Positions 2,429-61,560 of a DNA stretch of 64,000 nt are shown here, piece after piece. Under the pieces are notes generated by a model. It was not told where the DNA came from. It saw only the letters and a program-made list of their open reading frames with translations, and ran no database searches. The stretch is taken from contig NZ_JAPELY010000001.1 of NCBI RefSeq assembly GCF_026343295.1, forward strand, positions 310,001-374,000, in the 5' to 3' direction. How positions within the stretch are numbered: the first letter of the stretch is position 1; each line of letters begins with the position of its first letter. The translations under genes and the position numbers were made by a program. The stretch is from Streptomyces sp. NBC_00083 (GTDB taxonomy: Bacteria > Actinomycetota > Actinomycetes > Streptomycetales > Streptomycetaceae).

Positions 2429-3219
2429 CGCATCCTCAGACGGCCCCGGGCATCGCACGCTTCCACGGACACACCGCGCTCGTCACGGGCGCGGGGCGCG
2501 GCATCGGCGCCGCCATCGCCCGCAGACTGACCGACGAGGGCGCGCGCGTCCTCGTCGCGGACATCGACGTGGCGGGCGCGGAGGCCGTCGCGGCGGAGCT
2601 GAAGGGGGCCGTCGCCCGGCACTGCGACGTCGCGTCCCGCGCCTCGGTGGAGGCCGCGGTGGCCTTCGCGGCGGAGGAGTTCGGGCGGCTCGACGTCCTC
2701 GTCAACAACGCGTACTCCTGCACTCCGGACGCCGCGCGCTTCGAGGACGAGGACGACGGGGAGTGGGCGCGCGACCTGGATGTCACCCTCACCGGTGCCT
2801 TCCGGTGCGCACGTGCCGCGCTGCCGCTCCTGGCGGCGTCCGGGCGGGGCGCGATCGTGAACATCGGCTCGGTCAACGGGGAGCAGGACTTCGGCAACCA
2901 CGCCTACAGCGCGGCCAAGGCGGGCCTCGCCTCCCTGACCCGTACGCTCGCCGGGGACGCGGCGCCGCGCGGGGTGCGCGTCAATCTCGTGCACCCCGGC
3001 ACGATCCGGACGCCTGCCTGGGCCGACCGCGCGGACCAGCTGGACCGGCTGTCCGTGGCCTACCCGCTCGGCCGGGTGGGCGAGCCCGAGGACATCGCGG
3101 CGGCGGTCGCCTTCCTCGCCTCGGCCGACGCGGCGTGGGTGACGGGGACGACCCTGCGCGTCGACGGCGGTCTGCTCGCCGTCAACACGGGCTTCCGGGC
3201 TGTCGCGGAGGAGGGTTAA
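2425..3219 (+). CDS. SDR family NAD(P)-dependent oxidoreductase
   Basis: 264-residue classical short-chain dehydrogenase/reductase. Visible motifs: Rossmann TGAGRGIG, the NNAYS element (usually NNAG), the catalytic serine in NIGSVNG, Y-x-x-x-K as YSAAK, and a C-terminal VDGG typical of the FabG-like branch. The start ATG overlaps the TGA of the upstream serine hydrolase, so hydrolase and dehydrogenase probably act on the same metabolite (for example ester cleavage then alcohol oxidation; inferred). The substrate is unknown. The next gene is convergent. Confidence 0.92.
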   Translation: MTHPQTAPGIARFHGHTALVTGAGRGIGAAIARRLTDEGARVLVADIDVAGAEAVAAELKGAVARHCDVASRASVEAAVAFAAEEFGRLDVLVNNAYSCTPDAARFEDEDDGEWARDLDVTLTGAFRCARAALPLLAASGRGAIVNIGSVNGEQDFGNHAYSAAKAGLASLTRTLAGDAAPRGVRVNLVHPGTIRTPAWADRADQLDRLSVAYPLGRVGEPEDIAAAVAFLASADAAWVTGTTLRVDGGLLAVNTGFRAVAEEG

Positions 3220-54105: not shown

Positions 54106-54540
54106 CCCTTTCCCGCGGTTCCGCCGCGGTGGGGGCGGGTGATCCGTTCGGTCCCGGGTGCCCTACAGGGGCGCGGGGCTGTGCCGTTTGCGCGGCTCCG
54201 CCGCGGTGGGCGCGGGCGGTGGGCTGCGGTGCCGGGTGCCCTACGTCTTTAGGGGCGCGGGGAACTGCGCGAGACGCGGGCACGGTCTGCAGACGAAAGC
54301 GGGGTTGCTGGGGCTCCGCCCCAGACCCCGGGGGATGCCCCACCCCACCCCTTCCCGAAACCCTCCGGGGGCGGGAAGAGGGGGCTGAGGTCCAGGCTCC
54401 TGGGGCTCCGCCCCAGACCCCGTTCGCGCCCGAAAGGCGCTCGTCCTCAAACGCCGGACGGGCTGAAAGGGCGCGCTCGTCCTCAAACGCCGGACAGGCT
54501 GAAGCGCGCTCGTCCTCCGCCGGGCGGGCTAAAGAGGACA
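54106..54540. repeat. Intergenic repeat cluster (C, C, B, A; inverted) before the SUKH locus
   Basis: About 435 bases between convergent genes. Module C halves (GCGGTTCCGCCGCGG near 54115; GCGCGGCTCCGCCGCGG near 54190), module B reversed (GGGGCGCGGGGAACTGCGCG near 54252), then module A reversed with the core GCTCGTCCTCAAACGCCGG near 54440 and 54475 and a truncated third copy near 54507. No gene is supported. Confidence 0.85.
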
Positions 54541-54544
54541 GGGT

Positions 54545-55033
54545 TCAGCCCGCTGTCAGGCGTACCGGCTGCGTGCCCGTGATCAGCGTGGACAGCGCGT
54601 GATCGATGTCCGCCCCGAGGTACCAGTCGCCCGTGTGATCGAGCGAGTACACCCGCCCCTCCGAGTCGATCGCGAGCACCGCCTGCTGATCGCCCTCCTC
54701 GCCGAGCGGAGCGATGTCCGTGTCGAGGGCCCGTCCGAGGTCGGCCAGGGTGCGGGCGAGGTGGAGGCCGGCGAGGGGGTCGAAGCGCAGGGCGGCCGGG
54801 GCGTTGCGGCGGCCGGGGCCCGGTGCGGTGAGGCGGAGGCCGCCGAATTCGGCCCAGGCCTCGACGGCCGCGGGGAAGACGGTGTGGCGGTGGCCCGCGG
54901 GCGAGGCGTGGCCGCGCAGCACGTCGGCCCAGGCCTCGGCCTGGCGGATGTCCCAGCGGCCGGGCTGCCAGCCGGCGGAGCGCAGGGCGGCGTCGACGGG
55001 GACGGGGAAGCGGGTGGTGGAGATGTCCGGCAT
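54545..55033 (-). CDS. SUKH-3 domain protein (immunity-type)
   Basis: 162-residue protein of the SUKH superfamily, class SUKH-3 (family call from sequence pattern). A-EAWADVLRGHA (~30-42), a central EFGGLRLT (~62-69; SUKH proteins typically carry a G-G-L motif here), and the C-terminal IDSEGRVYSLDHTGDWYLGADIDHALSTLI pattern. SUKH proteins neutralise nuclease or deaminase toxins in polymorphic toxin systems. It lies 41 bases downstream of the YwqJ-type deaminase gene in the same direction, the expected toxin-immunity pairing. Confidence 0.85.
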   Translation of the reverse strand: MPDISTTRFPVPVDAALRSAGWQPGRWDIRQAEAWADVLRGHASPAGHRHTVFPAAVEAWAEFGGLRLTAPGPGRRNAPAALRFDPLAGLHLARTLADLGRALDTDIAPLGEEGDQQAVLAIDSEGRVYSLDHTGDWYLGADIDHALSTLITGTQPVRLTAG

Positions 55034-55074: not shown

Positions 55075-55860
55075 CTACGGTTCGACGCTGCGGACGCCGA
55101 AGTGGGCCAGGAGCGCGGTGCAGGAGCGGCAGGGCGGTGCGTAGCTGCCGTGGAGGGGGTCGCCGTCCTCGCGTATGCGGCGCGCGGTCAGCTTGGCGTG
55201 TTTGAGGGCGCGGCGGGCTTCGCCGTGGGTGAGGGGTTTGCGCTGGGCGCGTTTGGAGCGTCCCGTCTCGACGGCGGTCAAGTGCCGGGAGAGCAGGATC
55301 GCTTCGGGGCAGCGGCCGGTGAAGCGTTCGCGCTGGCCGCTGGTGAGGGTGTCGAGGTAGTCCTGGACGAGGGTGTGCAGGACGGGTGGCTGTTCGCCTT
55401 TGCCCGCGGTGCAGGTGAGGGTTTCGCCGCGTACGGAGAGCGCGGCGGCGATGGCGGGGAGGATGCCGTCGCGGCGGTGGCGGAGTAAGGGCGCGGCGGT
55501 GCCGGCCGTCGCGCTCCAGGTGAGGCGAGGATCACCGGCGGAGGCCGGGCCTCCGCGTGCCGTGCCCAGCGCCGTGCCTGACGCCGGTCCCGGTGCGGTG
55601 CCCAGCGCCGTCCCCGGCACCGGTCCTGTGCCAAGTGCCGACGCCTGCCCCGTACCCCGTGCCGTACCCGGCACCGGTCCTGTGCCAAGTGCCGACGCCT
55701 GCCCCGTACCCCGTGCCGTACCCGGCACCGGTCCCGTGCCCCGTGCCTGCCCCGGGGCCGTCCCTGGTGCCGGTCCCGGCGGGCTCGGGGTTCCCGGGGT
55801 GCCCCCCGGCGCCCCCGGCGCCCCCCGTGTCGCGGATGTTTCGTCTGCTGCGGTCTGCAT
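55075..55860 (-). CDS. YwqJ-type deaminase-domain protein with bldA (TTA) codon
   Basis: 261-residue protein. Residues 1-110 are low-complexity Gly/Thr/Pro/Ala and include two copies of GTGPVPGTARGTGQASAL (41-76). The C-terminal half (~112-255) carries the deaminase-fold pattern CPE (184-186, in GRCPEAILLSRHL) and PCRSC (243-247), the zinc site of YwqJ-type nucleic-acid deaminases. There is no signal peptide or toxin-delivery domain. Codon 125 is TTA (55486-55488). GGAGGA lies 11 bases before the ATG. Paired with SUKH-3 downstream; divergent from the WHH-SUKH gene. Confidence 0.85.
   Translation of the reverse strand: MQTAADETSATRGAPGAPGGTPGTPSPPGPAPGTAPGQARGTGPVPGTARGTGQASALGTGPVPGTARGTGQASALGTGPVPGTALGTAPGPASGTALGTARGGPASAGDPRLTWSATAGTAAPLLRHRRDGILPAIAAALSVRGETLTCTAGKGEQPPVLHTLVQDYLDTLTSGQRERFTGRCPEAILLSRHLTAVETGRSKRAQRKPLTHGEARRALKHAKLTARRIREDGDPLHGSYAPPCRSCTALLAHFGVRSVEP
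55615..55722. repeat. 54-bp in-frame tandem repeat in the YwqJ-type gene
   Basis: Two copies of a 54-base unit (55615-55668, 55669-55722), apparently identical, plus a partial third beginning CGGCACCGGTCC at 55723. They encode 18 residues each, in the disordered N-terminal half of the deaminase protein. Identity suggests recent duplication. Confidence 0.9.
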
Positions 55861-55979
55861 GGTGCTGGTGTTCCTCCCACTGGCGGCGGCTTCAGCCGCA
55901 CGTGTCAGCGCCCCCGAGTTGCGGGGACAGCCTGCCAAATGTGGGTGGTGGTACGGAAGCTGGGGCGCGATAAGCGACG

Positions 55980-56000: not shown

Positions 56001-56111
56001 TGTGCGTGACGGTTGGTGACCGGATCGCGGGGCCGGTTCCCGGTATTGCACCACCGCATAGGCTGGTCCTCACCAGCCGGACGCAGGAGTACGCAGCAGG
56101 GGGCAACCGCC

Positions 56112-57098
56112 ATGACGACAGGTCGGCTCGGGCAGCATGCCGCGCCACCGAACGCGGCCTACGCCGGGCAGGTCGTGCACTTCCCGGACCCGGTAAGGGC
56201 CGCCCGGCATCCCAGAGGGGTGCGGGTGGACGAGAACGGCTTCCCGGTCTTCTCCGCGTACGCCCGCGCGGCGGTGGAGATCGCCGAGCCGCCCGAGGGG
56301 TTCGGGGTGGACGAGCTACGCCTGACCGACTACGTGTCGGCGAACGCGGCGCTGGCCGCGTCGGGGCACGAGCTGTGGGACACGATCGCCGCGGTGGCGA
56401 CGCCGCACGGCTGGACGTGGCACCACGTGGCGGGCGGCCGCCGGCTGGAGCTGGTGCCGGTCGAGGTGAAGGCGCTGTTGCGGCACTTCGGCGGTCTGGC
56501 GACGGCGCAGGTCGAGCACGGCAAGCGGGGCACGCGTCCGTTGCAGGAGACGCGGCCCGCGCACTTCGGTCTGCCGAAGGGTTCGGTGGCGGTGTCGGAG
56601 TCCCAACTCCTCGGTGTCGAGGAGGACTTGGGGTACCGGCTGCCGGGTGCCTACCGTTCGTTCCTGAAGGCGGCGGGCGGCTGCGCCCCGGTCGGCGCGG
56701 CGCTCGACGCGGAGCTGGGGCTCCTGGTGGACCAGCCGTTCTTCACGGTGCGCGACGAGGCGGCCGTCAATGACCTCGTCTACATCAACAAGTGTCTGCG
56801 TGATCACCTCACCAAGGACTATCTCGGCGTCGCCTTCGTGCAGGGCGGGATCCTCGCCGTGAAGGTGCGCGGGGCCGCGACCGGTTCGGTGTGGTTCTGC
56901 GCGTACGACGACGCCCGGGACCAGGACGGGCTGAGTGTGAACGAGCGGGTGGAGCGGCTGCTGCTGCCCTGCGGTGACGACTTCGACGCGTTCCTGGCGC
57001 GACTCGCGGGCAATCCGCCGGAGCTGGAGACCGTGGCGAACCTGATGGTGGACGGCGGCTTCGCGCGCGTCGTCGAGACGACCTCGGTAGGGGAGTGA
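56112..57098 (+). CDS. WHH-type HNH nuclease domain fused to SUKH-1 (SMI1/KNR4) domain
   Basis: 328-residue protein with two parts. Residues ~36-130 match the HNH/ENDO VII 'WHH' toxin nuclease pattern: NGFPVFSAYA (42-51), DYVSANAA, TPHGWTWHH (W103 H104 H105), LELVP (112-116) and RHFGG (124-128). Residues ~160-303 are SUKH-1/SMI1-KNR4: SESQLLGVEEDLGYRLPGAYRSFLKAAGG, YINKCLRDHL, FDAFLARL. Public annotation usually calls such genes 'SMI1/KNR4 family' only. There is no secretion signal. AGGGGG precedes the ATG at 56112. The next gene follows with near-overlap. Confidence 0.82.
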   Translation: MTTGRLGQHAAPPNAAYAGQVVHFPDPVRAARHPRGVRVDENGFPVFSAYARAAVEIAEPPEGFGVDELRLTDYVSANAALAASGHELWDTIAAVATPHGWTWHHVAGGRRLELVPVEVKALLRHFGGLATAQVEHGKRGTRPLQETRPAHFGLPKGSVAVSESQLLGVEEDLGYRLPGAYRSFLKAAGGCAPVGAALDAELGLLVDQPFFTVRDEAAVNDLVYINKCLRDHLTKDYLGVAFVQGGILAVKVRGAATGSVWFCAYDDARDQDGLSVNERVERLLLPCGDDFDAFLARLAGNPPELETVANLMVDGGFARVVETTSVGE

Positions 57099-57106
57099 GC
57101 CGGCCG

Positions 57107-59881
57107 ATGGTGACTTTCGCTCAGGCGCAGGAGCGCGCGGAAGAGTGGATCAACGGCGATGTGCCCGCGTATCAGCACCGTGAGGTGCGGGTGCGGGAGT
57201 TCGAGCTGGGTTTCGTGGTGTGGGCCGAGGACCGGGAGAACGGGCCCTCGGTCGACGGTGGCGCGCAGCGCCTGGTGATCGCCCGGGACAGCGGGGACGC
57301 CTCGCTGTGGCCGGCGCTGCCGGTGGGTGAGGTGATCCGCCGGTACGAGGAGGAGTACGGGGTGCCCGAGAACGCGCCGGCGGCGCCGGAGCCTCCGGCA
57401 CGCATCGATCTGAACCAGACGTCGTTCCTGCTGAGCCCGCCGGAGTGGTTGCAGGAGGCGGCCGACCGGCTGGGCATCCCGGACCGGCGGGGCGAGGGCG
57501 CCGCCGCCTCCGGTGCGGCCGGCAGCCCCGCGGGGCCCGTGGGCGCCGCGCCGTCGGCGCCCGCCGAGCCCGCGTGGCCGGCCGCCGCCGCTTCCCCGTC
57601 CGGTTCCGCTTCCGGTTTGGGTGCGAGTGCGGGTGTGGGTGTGGGTGCGCCGCAGGGTCCGGGTTCCGGTGCGGACGTTTCCGCCGGGGCCACTCCTTGG
57701 GCCGGCACGGACACCAACGCCGGGTCGGACGACGGCTCGGTGCCGTTGCCCGCCACGGTGTACGCGCCCGCCCTGTCCGGTTCGGACGGTGCCGACGCGG
57801 CCCCGCCCAGGGTGCTGCCCGAGGCGAAGACGGCGCTGATGTCGGGCGGCAGCCAGCTGCCCCCGACCGCGGTCGCGCCCGCCTACGACCCGCAGCAGGG
57901 CGCGCAGGGCATGCCGGGTGCTCCGGCGCAGGGTGCGACCCCGCCGCCCGCGGCGCCGTCCGCGTACGACCCGCAGCCGGGCGCGACCCCGTCGCCCGTC
58001 GGGCCCGCGGCCCCGCCCGTCGCGCACCCCGCGCCCTCGGCCGCCGTGCCGCCGGGCGCCGGGGACATCGCGGACGCCGCGACCAGCAAGGCGGTCGGTC
58101 CGCCGCCGGGTGCGCGGGCCTCGCGCGGCGGGGGTTCGACGACTCCGCCGCCGCCCGGCGCGCCGGGAACTCCGGGTGCCCGTCCGGGCGTTCCCACGGC
58201 GGGCCCGGTGCCGGGTTCGACGCCGCCGCCGGGTGCGTCGAGCGGCGGCTATCTGCCCACGCAGCTCGTGTCGCAGCTCGGGCCGGAGGGGCAGGGGGCG
58301 CAGCCGCCCCGGCCGCCCGGCTCGCCGACCCCGCCGCCCGCGCGGGGCGACGTGCACCATGCCGCGACGATGTTCGCGGACCCGAGCCTCGGCGGTCAGT
58401 CGGGCCTCGCGGCGCCGGTGCCGCCGGGTCCGCCCGGTGCCCCTGTGCCGCCCGGCCCTCCGGGGGCCCCGGGCCGGCCGGGTGCTCCGGTGCCGCCCGC
58501 GCCTCCCGGTGTGCCGCAGACGCCGCCCGGCGGTGTGCACCATGCCGCGACGATGTTCGCCGACCCCGGCCACCTGGGCCCCGCGGGTCCCGGCGGGCCG
58601 GGCGTGCCGATGCCCCCGGGTCAGCCGGGAGCCCCGGGCGCGCCGCTGCCGCCCGGTCAGCCCGGTGCCCCGGGTGGGCCCGGTGCTCCGCTGCCGCCCG
58701 CCGCTCCCGGCGCGCCGGGTGCTCCCGGCGGCGGTGTGCACCACGCGGCCACGATGCTGGCGGGCCCCACGCCGATGGGTCCCGGGCAGATGGGTCCCGG
58801 TGGCGGGGTGCCGCAGCCTCCCGGGCCGCCCGGCATGCCGCCCGGTGGCGCGGTGCCGCAGCCGCCGCCCGCGTACGGCTATCCCCAGCAGCCCCCGGCG
58901 GGGCTGCCCACGGTGGGCCCCGGCTACCAGGCGGTGCTGCGCTACCGTGCGCCCGACGGCTCCGAGCAGCAGCTCATCCGCCGTTCGGCGCCGGGCATTC
59001 CGCACCCGGAGTGGCAGATCTTCCATGAGCTGCGGTCGATGAACGTGCCCGCGGACCACGTCCTCGAACTCCACACCGAGCTGGAGTCGTGCGAGCTGCC
59101 GGGCGGCTACTGCGCGCGGATGATCCGTGAGCAGTGGCCGCAGGTGCGGATCACGCATGTCGCCCCGTACGGCAAGGACCACGGCTCGCGCCGTCAGGGC
59201 GTGCAGCATCTGCTCACCCACCAGGGCGAGTTGGCGCAGGTCGCGGACGGGCCCGCCCGGCCGCAGCCGGTGCGGGCGCCGATTCCGGCGGTGCAGCCGG
59301 TGCCACCCCTGCCGCCGGAGGGAGTGGCGCACGAGCTGGCGGGCGCGTTCGGTGCGCAGGGCGTGTTCCGTTTCGACCAGCGCGCGGTGTCGCGTCAGGG
59401 CGTGCCGGAGGTCGTCGCGGTCACGCTGGTGTGGGCGGGGCTTCCGGTGGACCTGGGCCCGTTCTTCTGGGCGCAGGCCGTGCCGGGCCAGCCGGTGCCG
59501 ACGCTGGCGGAGCTCGCGCAGCAGCGCGGGGTGCAGCCGGCCGCGGACGCGGGTTCGTACCTGGTGATGGGCTCCGACTTCGGGCGGGCGATCTGTGTCC
59601 AGTACGGGACCGCGAACATCGTGGCGGTGCCGGTGGAGGCGGGGCCCGGCGGTCAGTCGGTGCCGCCGCAGTTCGTGAACTCGGGGCTGCCCGAGTTCGT
59701 ACGGTCCCTCGCGCTGCTCGGCCGGATGTGGCGGCTGCGGTTCGGACTCAACCCGGAGCAGGCGGGCCGCTGGACGGTCGACTTCCAGGCGCAGCTCGCG
59801 GCGCTCGACCCGGCGGCGCTGGCGTCGCCGGAGAGCTGGTGGTCGGTGCTGCTCGAGCAGATGTGGGACGGGCTGCTCTGA
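57107..59881 (+). CDS. Imm35-like / Pro-rich / nucleotide deaminase / SUKH-4 fusion protein
   Basis: 924-residue multidomain protein. Residues ~1-85 (TFAQAQERAEEWINGD...VIRRYEEEYG) resemble the YrhB/Imm35 immunity domain. A 500-residue Pro/Gly/Ala-rich linker holds three VHHAATM(F/L)A motifs. A nucleic-acid/nucleotide deaminase-like domain follows (~610-700) with H656-T-E658 and C662-x6-C669 in HTELESCELPGGYC. A SUKH-4-type domain ends it (~720-924: RQGVPEVV, GLPEFVRSLALLGRMW, WWSVLLEQMWDGL). No signal peptide. ATG at 57107 is preferred (GGGGAG 11 bases upstream); a GTG at 57095 overlaps the upstream stop. Confidence 0.82.
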   Translation: MVTFAQAQERAEEWINGDVPAYQHREVRVREFELGFVVWAEDRENGPSVDGGAQRLVIARDSGDASLWPALPVGEVIRRYEEEYGVPENAPAAPEPPARIDLNQTSFLLSPPEWLQEAADRLGIPDRRGEGAAASGAAGSPAGPVGAAPSAPAEPAWPAAAASPSGSASGLGASAGVGVGAPQGPGSGADVSAGATPWAGTDTNAGSDDGSVPLPATVYAPALSGSDGADAAPPRVLPEAKTALMSGGSQLPPTAVAPAYDPQQGAQGMPGAPAQGATPPPAAPSAYDPQPGATPSPVGPAAPPVAHPAPSAAVPPGAGDIADAATSKAVGPPPGARASRGGGSTTPPPPGAPGTPGARPGVPTAGPVPGSTPPPGASSGGYLPTQLVSQLGPEGQGAQPPRPPGSPTPPPARGDVHHAATMFADPSLGGQSGLAAPVPPGPPGAPVPPGPPGAPGRPGAPVPPAPPGVPQTPPGGVHHAATMFADPGHLGPAGPGGPGVPMPPGQPGAPGAPLPPGQPGAPGGPGAPLPPAAPGAPGAPGGGVHHAATMLAGPTPMGPGQMGPGGGVPQPPGPPGMPPGGAVPQPPPAYGYPQQPPAGLPTVGPGYQAVLRYRAPDGSEQQLIRRSAPGIPHPEWQIFHELRSMNVPADHVLELHTELESCELPGGYCARMIREQWPQVRITHVAPYGKDHGSRRQGVQHLLTHQGELAQVADGPARPQPVRAPIPAVQPVPPLPPEGVAHELAGAFGAQGVFRFDQRAVSRQGVPEVVAVTLVWAGLPVDLGPFFWAQAVPGQPVPTLAELAQQRGVQPAADAGSYLVMGSDFGRAICVQYGTANIVAVPVEAGPGGQSVPPQFVNSGLPEFVRSLALLGRMWRLRFGLNPEQAGRWTVDFQAQLAALDPAALASPESWWSVLLEQMWDGLL

Positions 59882-60145
59882 CCGCTGCCGCGGCCGTCGC
59901 TGCTGCCGTGGTCGTGGTCGTGTCGAGGCGCTCACCGCGCGGGTCGTGGTGGGCGCCTCGGCCGTTCCGGCGGCCGGTGCGGTGGTCGTTTCGGTGGTCG
60001 CTCCCCTCGTCCGTCGTCCCGCTTTCACGCGATGTCCCTTTCTGACGCCGATTGACGCATCCTTGACCGTGTCATGTGGGCGGAGTGTCGCCATATCGGC
60101 CCCTTCGTTTCGATCGGCCGGGGTGCGGGAGAGAGGGCTTTCGGG

Positions 60146-61039
60146 ATGAGCGCAGCATCGGTGCCGTCGTCGGCGCGGCCGTTCGGGACCGGCCGGGGTC
60201 GTGGCTACCGTCCCGACCAGGTCGACCCCGCGGTGGCCCGGCTCGTACGGGAGGCGGAGGCGGCGCGGGAGCGGGAGGCGCGGCTCGCCGTGCTCGCCGA
60301 CGAGCTGACCGAGCGTGCGGCGCGGCTGCGCGAGCAGGTCGCCGGGCTCGCGCCGCAGACGTACGAGGCGCTCGGCGGACAGGCCCGTGAGCTGTACGCG
60401 CTCTGCGCCGAGGAGGCCGACGAGCTGCGGGCCGCGGCGGAGGAGGCGGCGGCCGACGAGGTACGTGCCGCGGAGGATGCGGGCCGGGCGGCGCGGGACG
60501 CGGCGCGGGCGCACAGCGAGGCGGTGCTCGCCGACGCGCAGGAGTGGGCCGAGCGGCGGCTGCTCGCGGCCGGTACGGAGGCGGACGAGGTACGGGGCTC
60601 CGCGCGCGGCGAGGCGGAGCAGATGCGTACGGAGGCGGCCGGAGAGCTGGCCGCCGCGGTCCGCCGCTGCGAGGCGCAGCTGGCCGAGCTGGAGCGGGAC
60701 CATGCGGAGGCGCTGGTCGCGGAGGAACGCGAACGGGCGGCGCGCGAGGGGCAGTTGGAGGCGCGGGTCGCGGAGCTGACGCGTGCGGCGGAGGCGGCGC
60801 TCGACGGCGCGCGGCGTGGTTTCGCCGAGGCGGAGGAGGGTGCGCGGCGCGCGGAGGAGGCGGCGCAGGCGCGCGCGGACGAGCTGCTGGCGGAGGCGGG
60901 TGCGAGTGCGGGGCGGGTTGTGGGGGAGGCGGAGGGGGTGGTGGCTGAGCATGAGGTTGAGCGGGTGGCGATGCGGGCGCACATGGCGCACGTACGCGAC
61001 GCCCTGTCCTCCCTGACGGGCCGCCGCCCTTCGCCCTGA
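60146..61039 (+). CDS. Ala/Glu-rich coiled-coil protein ('cellulose-binding' type)
   Basis: 297-residue protein. After a short disordered N-terminus with GRGRGYRPDQVD, residues ~35-290 form an almost continuous Ala/Glu/Arg-rich coiled coil. Proteins of this type in Streptomyces are often annotated 'cellulose-binding protein' and relate to the DivIVA/FilP/Scy cytoskeletal coiled coils of hyphal tips; a structural rather than enzymatic role is likely. GAGAGGG lies nine bases before the ATG at 60146. The 264-base gap before it holds no gene, only GTGGTCGTGGTCGTG-type simple repeats and TTGAC motifs at 60052 and 60063. Confidence 0.83.
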   Translation: MSAASVPSSARPFGTGRGRGYRPDQVDPAVARLVREAEAAREREARLAVLADELTERAARLREQVAGLAPQTYEALGGQARELYALCAEEADELRAAAEEAAADEVRAAEDAGRAARDAARAHSEAVLADAQEWAERRLLAAGTEADEVRGSARGEAEQMRTEAAGELAAAVRRCEAQLAELERDHAEALVAEERERAAREGQLEARVAELTRAAEAALDGARRGFAEAEEGARRAEEAAQARADELLAEAGASAGRVVGEAEGVVAEHEVERVAMRAHMAHVRDALSSLTGRRPSP

Positions 61040-61560
61040 CGGGCCGCCCCCCTTTGCCCTGACGGGCCGCCCCCGAACCGCTCCAGTCCCTTCGGCCCCA
61101 TGCCCCCTTGCCCCCCTGCCCCTGGTCGGCACCGGCCGCAGACAGCCGACCGAGGGTGCCGGCCCGGCCCCTGAAGCTGCCTCCGCCTGCGGACCGTGCC
61201 CACGTCTCGCGCAGTTCCCCGCGCCCCTGAGGCCTCGTTTGTCTGCAGTCCGTGCGTGGTTGCTCGCGCAGTTCCCCGCGCCCCTGGCTACGCCGTGCGA
61301 ACCGGCATGCACAGTGCCCGCGCCCTTGGCACGTCGTGCGAACCGGCACGCACAGTGCCCGCGCCCCTGGCACGTCTTGCGCACCCGGCGTGCACAGCGC
61401 CCGGTCCCCTCACCCCGTCGACCACCGCCAGAGCTAAGGGGCGCGGGGAACTGCGCGAGCACCCCCCACCGGCTCGCGGTCGAAGTCGGGTTTTAGGGGC
61501 GCGGGGAACTGCGCGAATGCCGGGCACGGTTCGTAGGCGTACCTGCGGCGCACCCGCACC
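61040..61560. repeat. Intergenic repeat cluster with a 41-bp tandem array
   Basis: Gene-free. Module B cores (CGCAGTTCCCCGCGCCCC) occur near 61208 and 61267 and in reverse near 61438 and 61497. Between them a 41-base unit containing CGTGCGAACCGGC...CACAGTGCCCGCGCCC is repeated about three times (starts near 61294, 61335, 61376), the last copy diverged. GACGGGCCGCC repeats lie at 61016-61070. Confidence 0.8.

What the first reader, a model, noticed from the sequence alone, without database searches (positions are those of the whole stretch)
57107..59881. Deaminase flanked on one chain by two different immunity-type domains
The order Imm35-like, 500-residue Pro-rich linker, nucleotide deaminase, SUKH-4 puts a candidate inhibitor on each side of the enzyme. 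The long flexible linker would let the N-terminal domain fold back on the deaminase or reach partners. The zinc motif reads H-T-E and C-x6-C (CELPGGYC), an unusual spacing compared with PCxxC.
Basis: partly seen in the sequence, partly recalled or inferred. Interest (0 to 1): 0.72.

Follow-up and report, generated by a model that had tools for sequence, protein, structure and literature searches.

The report
Core Streptomyces toxin fused to antidote
Most streptomycete genomes examined carry this gene, in which a deaminase of a kind otherwise found as the tip of predicted injected bacterial toxins is joined on one chain to its usual antidote domain and sits beside two more toxin-antidote pairs, which suggests that an old weapon was tamed into a cell-internal tool.

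Summary
The ORF is real: 57107-59881(+), 924 aa, Streptomyces. Residues 604-704 are an XOO_2897-type deaminase, 741-918 a SUKH-4 domain; the N-terminal domain is only marginally Imm35-like. C-x6-C is ordinary here.

The larger finding is the setting. In 4 of 4 polymorphic toxins examined this deaminase is C-terminal and the next gene is SUKH-4, so this chain fuses a cognate toxin-immunity pair. Beside it lie a fused WHH-nuclease/SUKH-1 gene and a YwqJ-deaminase/SUKH-3 pair. The three-pair locus is core and largely syntenic in the family, vertically inherited and under purifying selection. The linker carries conserved, mostly Thr-centred motifs. Best reading: a domesticated, cis-inhibited intracellular deaminase. 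Inhibition, trigger and substrate are inferred, not shown.

The parts
57107..59881 (+). fused gene: N-terminal domain - motif-bearing Pro/Gly/Ala linker - XOO_2897-type deaminase - SUKH-4 (924 aa + stop)
   Evidence: start codon at this place in the 72 named orthologs read, of 80
57107..57361 (+). N-terminal domain, residues 1-85; marginally Imm35-like; helix, four strands, helix in a low-confidence model
57416..57466 (+). linker motif QTSFLLSPPEWLQEAAD (residues 104-120); [QEA]TSF[LM]L in 63 of 63 linkers
57695..57718 (+). linker motif PWAGTDTN (197-204); [PS]WAGTD in 51 of 63
57749..57781 (+). linker motif PATVYAPALSG (215-225); ATV[FY]A[PG] in 41 of 63
57827..57880 (+). linker motifs KTALMSGGS (241-249; class in 41 of 63) and LPPTAVAP (251-258; class in 23 of 63)
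58064..58093 (+). linker motif DIADAATSKA (320-329); class in 52 of 63
58247..58279 (+). linker motif GYLPTQLVSQL (381-391); PTQLVS in 46 of 63
58352..58384 (+). VHHAATMFADP repeat 1 (416-426); motif class in 59 of 63 linkers, up to 5 copies
   Evidence: the core pattern was found at three places in the own genome, all in this gene
58535..58567 (+). VHHAATMFADP repeat 2 (477-487)
58736..58768 (+). VHHAATMLAGP repeat 3 (544-554)
58916..59218 (+). XOO_2897-type deaminase domain, residues 604-704
   Evidence: E 3e-33; deaminase-fold matches
59003..59011 (+). catalytic HxE motif: H633-P634-E635 (not the HTE at 656-658)
59090..59113 (+). zinc cysteines C662 and C669 (C-x6-C)
59327..59860 (+). SUKH-4 immunity-type domain, residues 741-918
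   Evidence: E 3e-49
56112..57098 (+). upstream partner gene: WHH/HNH nuclease domain (about 56394-56510) fused to SUKH-1 (about 56592-56999); 8 bases lie between its stop and the 57107 start
55075..55683 (-). divergent gene, part examined: YwqJ-type deaminase with CPE and PCRSC motifs, after a low-complexity N-terminal region (start codon uncertain)
54545..55033 (-). SUKH-3 immunity-type gene, directly downstream of the YwqJ-type deaminase
56052..56065 (+). conserved TAGGCT-type -10 promoter-like element upstream of the WHH-SUKH-1 gene

Best explanation
The protein is a domesticated polymorphic-toxin module. A deaminase that elsewhere is the C-terminal tip of predicted RHS, HINT or T7SS-type toxins has been fused in frame with its usual immunity domain, SUKH-4, so that toxin and antidote can no longer be separated by secretion. 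It works inside the producing cell. Most likely SUKH-4 covers the deaminase active site in cis (or between two copies) and keeps it off. The N-terminal domain and the conserved, mostly Thr-centred motifs in the linker dock partners and carry the signal, perhaps phosphorylation, that lifts the inhibition; the deaminase then acts on the cell's own (or an invader's) nucleic acid or nucleotides. It belongs to a core locus of the family with two other toxin-fold/SUKH pairs: WHH-SUKH-1 fused, and YwqJ deaminase with SUKH-3 as neighbours. Shown here by computation: architecture, pairing in toxins, invariant catalytic set, purifying selection, vertical inheritance, conserved linker motifs. Inferred: cis-inhibition, phospho or partner control, cytoplasmic site of action, substrate.
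For: Deaminase and SUKH-4 by Pfam. In 4 of 4 polymorphic toxins examined the same deaminase is C-terminal and the next gene is SUKH-4. Catalytic set H/E/C/C intact in 150 of 150 genus loci (147 distinct) and 58 of 58 scored family loci (2 of them from the genus); in 22 short-linker paralogs it is all kept (8) or lost with both Cys gone (14). Median dN/dS: deaminase 0.126, N-terminal domain 0.121, SUKH-4 0.185, WHH 0.163, SUKH-1 0.168; nearby ABC ATPase 0.113, kinase 0.305, coiled coil 0.554. Matches in 189 of 199 genus genomes, 183 at E 1e-150 or better, and 98 of 101 family genomes, four of these weak only; WHH-SUKH-1 in 97 of 101, YwqJ in 101 of 101. Order conserved in 66 of 69 and in 66 of 66 full-flank named loci. 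Pairwise distances track those of the flanking kinase, r 0.83 against a permutation maximum of 0.18. Linker motifs far above shuffles. Pfam shows no secretion domain in this protein, WHH-SUKH-1, SUKH-3 or the scanned part of YwqJ.
Against: No activity, inhibition or complex was tested. The structure model is poor (pLDDT 50, pTM 0.31), so the SUKH-4/deaminase interface is unseen. Nothing identifies the trigger, and no phosphosite data were found. Part of the paralog family kept N-domain, deaminase fold and SUKH-4 after losing the catalytic set (14 of 22), so the domain can have a non-catalytic use. One same-genus genome (L024) lacks the YwqJ/SUKH-3 pair in the 20 kb examined, 10 of 199 genus genomes gave no match, and genera g6 and g9 lack a clear copy of the fused gene, so it is not indispensable to the family. 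In 6 of 68 genus loci the N-domain and SUKH-4 are not in one open frame. No signal-peptide predictor was run.
Confidence: 0.6

Rival explanations
1. Cell-suicide guard: the fused toxin-antidote is a sensor. A phage product, or a competitor toxin that binds SUKH-4, pulls it off, the deaminase (and in parallel the WHH nuclease) is freed and the infected compartment dies.
For: Same architecture as above; two of the three enzymes are fused to SUKH domains, and three different SUKH families sit in one locus; multicellular hyphae could afford compartment suicide (inference).
Against: Known defence systems tend to be patchy (recalled), whereas this one is core and vertically inherited; no PADLOC match in 5 proteins.
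Confidence: 0.18
2. Pseudoenzyme or scaffold: deaminase fold and SUKH-4 serve only as binding surfaces in a regulatory complex organised by the N-domain and linker motifs.
For: 14 of 22 short-linker paralogs lost the catalytic set but keep the three folded parts; the N-domain is as constrained as the deaminase.
Against: In this gene the catalytic set is intact in all 208 orthologous loci scored, three of them duplicates; the two neighbouring enzymes also keep their motifs.
Confidence: 0.14
3. Secreted or injected antibacterial effector that carries its own immunity domain.
For: The deaminase family is the tip of predicted toxins; some SUKH-toxin fusions are listed in PMC3482391 (table passages).
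Against: Pfam shows no WXG100, RHS or HINT part and I see no signal peptide by eye (no predictor run); SUKH-4, not the toxin, is C-terminal; nearly all streptomycetes examined would share the immunity, so no kin discrimination.
Confidence: 0.06
4. Immunity decoy: the SUKH-4 part neutralises incoming XOO_2897 toxins and the deaminase part is a built-in template that keeps it folded.
For: SUKH-4 is the immunity family found beside this deaminase in toxins.
Against: A decoy would not need an invariant active site; orthologs are too alike (median identity of the deaminase 90.8%) to match fast-changing toxins.
Confidence: 0.04

Closest known systems
XOO_2897-like deaminase toxins of polymorphic toxin systems (PF14440) with SUKH-4 immunity
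   Same: Same deaminase family and same immunity family in the same order; HxE and two Cys aligned
   Different: Toxin and immunity are one chain; no trafficking domain by Pfam; core gene, not variable; N-domain and motif-bearing linker instead of RHS/HINT
SUKH-toxin fusions and polyimmunity proteins (PMC3482391, table and section passages seen)
   Same: That paper's table says of SUKH 'Shows fusions on occasions to toxins and immunity domains', so fusion as such is known
   Different: Occasional there; here three pairs with three SUKH families in one largely syntenic locus through a bacterial family
DddA-type DNA cytosine deaminase toxins (SCP1.201 family; family name recalled)
   Same: Deaminase fold; DddA and DddB appear among the weak structural matches
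   Different: Different deaminase family by HMM; substrate unknown here
Type II toxin-antitoxin modules (recalled, not searched)
   Same: Works like one: intracellular toxin held by a protein antidote (inferred)
   Different: Different folds; antidote covalently attached; core rather than mobile

Membership tests
XOO_2897-like deaminase (PF14440) | Match above the curated HMM cut-off | tested here: met
   114.3 bits against a cut-off of 27, residues 604-704
XOO_2897-like deaminase (PF14440) | HxE plus two zinc cysteines aligned with toxin members | tested here: met
   H633-P-E635, C662, C669
XOO_2897-like deaminase (PF14440) | Deaminase fold | tested here: inconclusive
   Model pLDDT 50; Foldseek no match at E 0.001 or better, best APOBEC3H E 0.034; VIA-align, a second look at Foldseek's 1000 best chains: 36 of the first 37 rows are deaminase-fold proteins, best Z 7.8, rmsd 3.2, 82 aligned, under the Z 8 that the tool calls middling
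XOO_2897-like deaminase (PF14440) | Deaminase activity | not testable with these tools
   No assay possible
SUKH-4 (PF14435) | Match above the curated HMM cut-off | tested here: met
   167.8 bits against 25.5, residues 741-918
SUKH-4 (PF14435) | Neutralises its toxin partner | not testable with these tools
   Only gene order supports pairing
Imm35 (PF15567) | Match above the curated HMM cut-off | tested here: not met
   Window N-domain: no match up to E 10; 3 of 29 homologs match, best E 0.015
Polymorphic toxin | N-terminal trafficking domain and C-terminal toxin tip | tested here: not met
   No trafficking domain in Pfam; SUKH-4 is C-terminal, unlike 4 of 4 toxin relatives
Polymorphic toxin | Variable, patchy occurrence with a separate immunity gene | tested here: not met
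   Matches in 189 of 199 and 98 of 101 genomes, conserved order, fused immunity
Known anti-phage defence systems (PADLOC-DB 2.0.0) | Match to a model | tested here: not met
   0 matches for 5 proteins of the locus (YwqJ: the part 55075-55683 only), E up to 1; absence from that library only

The most novel reading that the evidence does not exclude
Streptomycetes run a built-in, signal-gated self-editing or self-damage module: three domesticated weapons (two deaminases and a nuclease), each restrained by a different SUKH domain, are released in their own hyphae by partner docking or phosphorylation at the linker motifs, to edit RNA, mutate DNA or kill a hyphal compartment during development or infection.
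Probability: 0.25. Interest if true: 0.88.

Novelty: new variant of a known kind. Interest (0 to 1): 0.64.

Why it matters
Polymorphic toxins are known for rapid turnover. Here three of their enzyme families, each with its own SUKH partner, have become a vertically inherited core locus of a bacterial family, with active-site motifs intact in the loci scored. If active, it would be a native intracellular deaminase/nuclease system in the main antibiotic producers, and in principle a source of deaminases with built-in off switches. The genes are testable by simple gene removal in laboratory strains. Searches of the open-licence library by locus tag found no paper that names the presumed S. coelicolor genes SCO3115-SCO3118; supplements and subscription papers were not searched.

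Tried and rejected
Rejected: 'HTE is the zinc motif'. I first counted it as such and saw apparent decay in other genera: 16 of 58 family loci altered. The alignment with four toxins showed that the true HxE is HPE; the recount gave 58 of 58 intact. The 'HTE' counts are therefore not evidence on catalysis.

Rejected: secreted polymorphic toxin (no trafficking domain by Pfam, core distribution). Led nowhere: NCBIfam (no match for this protein), PADLOC, PDB sequence searches with profiles of the N-domain and of deaminase-SUKH-4 (0 matches each up to E 1), Foldseek and VIA-align with the N-domain model (no match at E 0.001; best Z 4.3), own-genome search for further N-domains (only this gene at E 0.01, with 150 of 442 first-look candidates scored, so not exhaustive). 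The structure predictions were limited by shallow alignments. The phospho-Thr docking idea rests on sequence only; resemblance to FHA or kinase motifs is recalled, not tested. Iyer 2011 and Zhang 2011 (NAR), the likely sources on deaminase toxins and SUKH, are not held, so whether they already show a Streptomyces fusion could not be checked.

Full report
OBSERVATION. The ORF 57107-59881(+) encodes 924 residues. Pfam gives the XOO_2897-like deaminase at 604-704 and SUKH-4 at 741-918. Residues 1-85 form a conserved N-terminal domain; residues 86-600 are a Pro/Gly/Ala-rich linker. A low-confidence model (pLDDT 62.5) gives helix, four strands, helix without a convincing structural match. Eight bases separate the start from the stop of the upstream gene.

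ZINC SITE CORRECTED. Aligning the domain with four polymorphic-toxin members puts the toxins' HAE, HSE, HSE and HTE over the window's H633-P-E635, at the start of the first helix of the model. The cysteines are C662 and C669. Over 150 genus loci (window included; 147 distinct, three genomes having been fetched twice) and the 58 scored of 60 family loci (2 of the 58 are from the genus), H/E/C/C are intact in all; the 'HTE' His or Glu is altered in 16 of the 58 (my earlier searches had counted HTE as catalytic, which was a mistake). In 22 short-linker paralogs the set is fully intact in 8; in the other 14 both Cys are lost together with His (7) or Glu (7). A further relative without a detected N-domain (L027) is intact. 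This all-or-none pattern supports the new assignment, although related loci are not independent and the 22 were taken from the best-scoring matches. C-x6-C is ordinary: the toxins have spacings of 5, 6, 6 and 3 (counted).

FOLD. The AlphaFold2 model of 601-924 is poor (pLDDT 49.8, pTM 0.31). Foldseek has no match at E 0.001; its best are APOBEC3H (E 0.034), with blasticidin S deaminase and DddA lower down. VIA-align, a second look at Foldseek's candidates, puts model residues 2-87 on cytidine deaminases (best Z 7.8, rmsd 3.2, 82 aligned; 36 of the first 37 rows are deaminase-fold proteins). This is suggestive, not proof; the SUKH part was not modelled reliably.

COGNATE PAIR. The four PF14440 matches outside the window's family are polymorphic toxins, all from one other family of the order: L026 with T7SS signal and RHS repeats, L028 and L033 with RHS, L029 with a pretoxin HINT domain. 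In each the deaminase is C-terminal and the next gene is SUKH-4: 4 of 4. The window chain therefore joins a toxin to the immunity family that accompanies it there, in the same order.

NEIGHBOURS. Upstream, 56112-57098(+) is a WHH nuclease fused to SUKH-1 (start ATG). On the other strand the part 55075-55683 is a YwqJ-type deaminase, directly followed by SUKH-3 at 54545-55033. So three enzymes of toxin families sit with three different SUKH families. The YwqJ C-x-E and P-C-x-x-C residues are invariant in 138 loci and W-H-H of the nuclease in 141 loci (a few duplicates), and they recur in the other genera looked at, except that the two g9 loci show no CxE in the YwqJ match.

DISTRIBUTION. Deaminase-SUKH-4: 189 of 199 genomes of the genus match at E 0.001, 183 of them at E 1e-150 or better; the six weaker ones include G001, whose match is a short-linker paralog; 10 have none, several of them fragmented assemblies (only part of the first-look candidates is scored per genome). 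Family: 98 of 101 genomes, 16 of 17 genera, but the four g9 genomes have only weak matches (2e-13 to 1e-16), so 94 of 101 are strong, two of these in pieces. WHH-SUKH-1: 97 of 101, three of these (g9) about 40% identical. YwqJ: 101 of 101. In the class sample 14 of 148 match, 11 of them from the genus; the other 3 of 137 are two short-linker paralogs that lost the catalytic set (G400, G410 = L263, L264) and one partial match. Gene order from SUKH-3 to SUKH-4 is complete in 66 of 69 genus loci (two misses cut by contig ends, one real) and in 66 of 66 named loci with full flanks, of 80 fetched. For one search I took 60 of the places listed plus nine loci, so well-scoring orthologs are over-represented; three genomes occur in both sets. 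In 20 loci from other genera, 18 have the fused gene, all 18 next to WHH-SUKH-1, and 16 of the 18 show all six modules in order, in several of them with some kilobases inserted between the divergent halves.

SELECTION AND INHERITANCE. Median pairwise dN/dS (Nei-Gojobori, own script, pairs with dS 0.2-1): N-domain 0.121, deaminase 0.126, WHH 0.163, SUKH-1 0.168, SUKH-4 0.185, YwqJ 0.327, SUKH-3 0.329; nearby ABC ATPase 0.113, histidine kinase 0.305, coiled coil 0.554. GC-biased codon use makes the absolute values rough; YwqJ and SUKH-3 are no more constrained than the kinase. Pairwise distances of the deaminase correlate with those of the flanking kinase at r 0.83 (118 loci; maximum of 300 permutations 0.18). 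Vertical inheritance with purifying selection fits; polymorphic toxins would not be expected to behave so.

LINKER. In 63 linkers (371-858 residues; six of 68 loci dropped because of frame breaks) motifs recur: [QEA]TSF[LM]L in 63 of 63, PPEWL 62, DIADA.TS class 52, WAGTD 51, PTQLVS 46, ATV[FY]A 41, KT.L[ML] class 41, LPPTAV class 23, and A[AE]T[MV][LFV]A in 59 of 63 with up to 5 copies; in 100 shuffles of the linkers no motif exceeded 1 occurrence in total. Only 448 of 1656 linker Thr lie in these motifs. The AATM[LF]A[GD]P-type pattern occurs in the own genome three times, all here. Outside the genus the QTSFLL motif is the most persistent, 14 of 18; the AATM type is seen in 6 of 18 (counted). 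Docking or phosphorylation is my inference.

EXPRESSION HINT. Upstream of WHH-SUKH-1 a TAGGCT-type -10 element and the ribosome-binding region are nearly invariant over 138 genus loci, and the element recurs in most of the other genera shown. Assigning it to the vegetative sigma factor is recall.

LITERATURE. PMC3482391 (passages only) lists XOO2897 and YwqJ deaminases and WHH as SUKH-associated toxins and says SUKH is fused to toxins on occasion. By gene order the locus corresponds to S. coelicolor SCO3115-SCO3118: it lies between a coiled-coil gene (SCO3114, PMC2680258, passages) and an orphan kinase (SCO3119, PMC9739842, one table passage), with the ABC pair SCO3110-3111 (PMC3123327, passages) downstream; in L021 an ORF that I read as Mfd follows that pair. 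This mapping is inference. Searches by locus tag (SCO3110, 3111 and 3113-3119) found no paper that names SCO3115-SCO3118.

VERDICT. A domesticated toxin-antidote fusion in a core three-pair locus; cis-inhibition is likely but unproven.

Noticed in passing
L022, L067, L075, L078, L095, L099: In 6 of 68 genus loci the N-domain and SUKH-4 are not in one open frame across the GC-rich linker: sequencing errors, repeat slippage or real frameshifts.
   Followed up: no
L030, L031, L253-L272: A short-linker paralog family (N-domain, deaminase, SUKH-4) in which 14 of the 22 loci examined have lost the catalytic set: pseudo-deaminases that keep the architecture.
   Followed up: partly
L031:6599-6910: A small ORF that encodes only the N-terminal-type domain follows a short-linker paralog; L030 and L257 show a second such match after the paralog too.
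   Followed up: no
L220, L221 (genus g9): No fused deaminase; instead tandem WHH-SUKH-1 relatives, 29-40% identical, with a SUKH-3-like match nearby.
   Followed up: no
window 60074-61039: Downstream coiled-coil gene, weakly DivIVA-like, fast-evolving (dN/dS 0.55) yet kept in place; by order the counterpart of SCO3114.
   Followed up: partly
window 55928-55941: A second conserved non-coding block (CAGCCTGCCAAATG) in the divergent intergenic region, perhaps the YwqJ promoter.
   Followed up: no
window 54241-54486 and 61239-61496: Translations of ORFs on both sides of the locus repeat 'AQFPAPL', which suggests copies of an intergenic GC-rich repeat.
   Followed up: no
window 56819-61462 (-): A 1547-aa ORF antisense to the fused gene; it looks like a by-product of GC-rich codon use, not a gene.
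   Followed up: no
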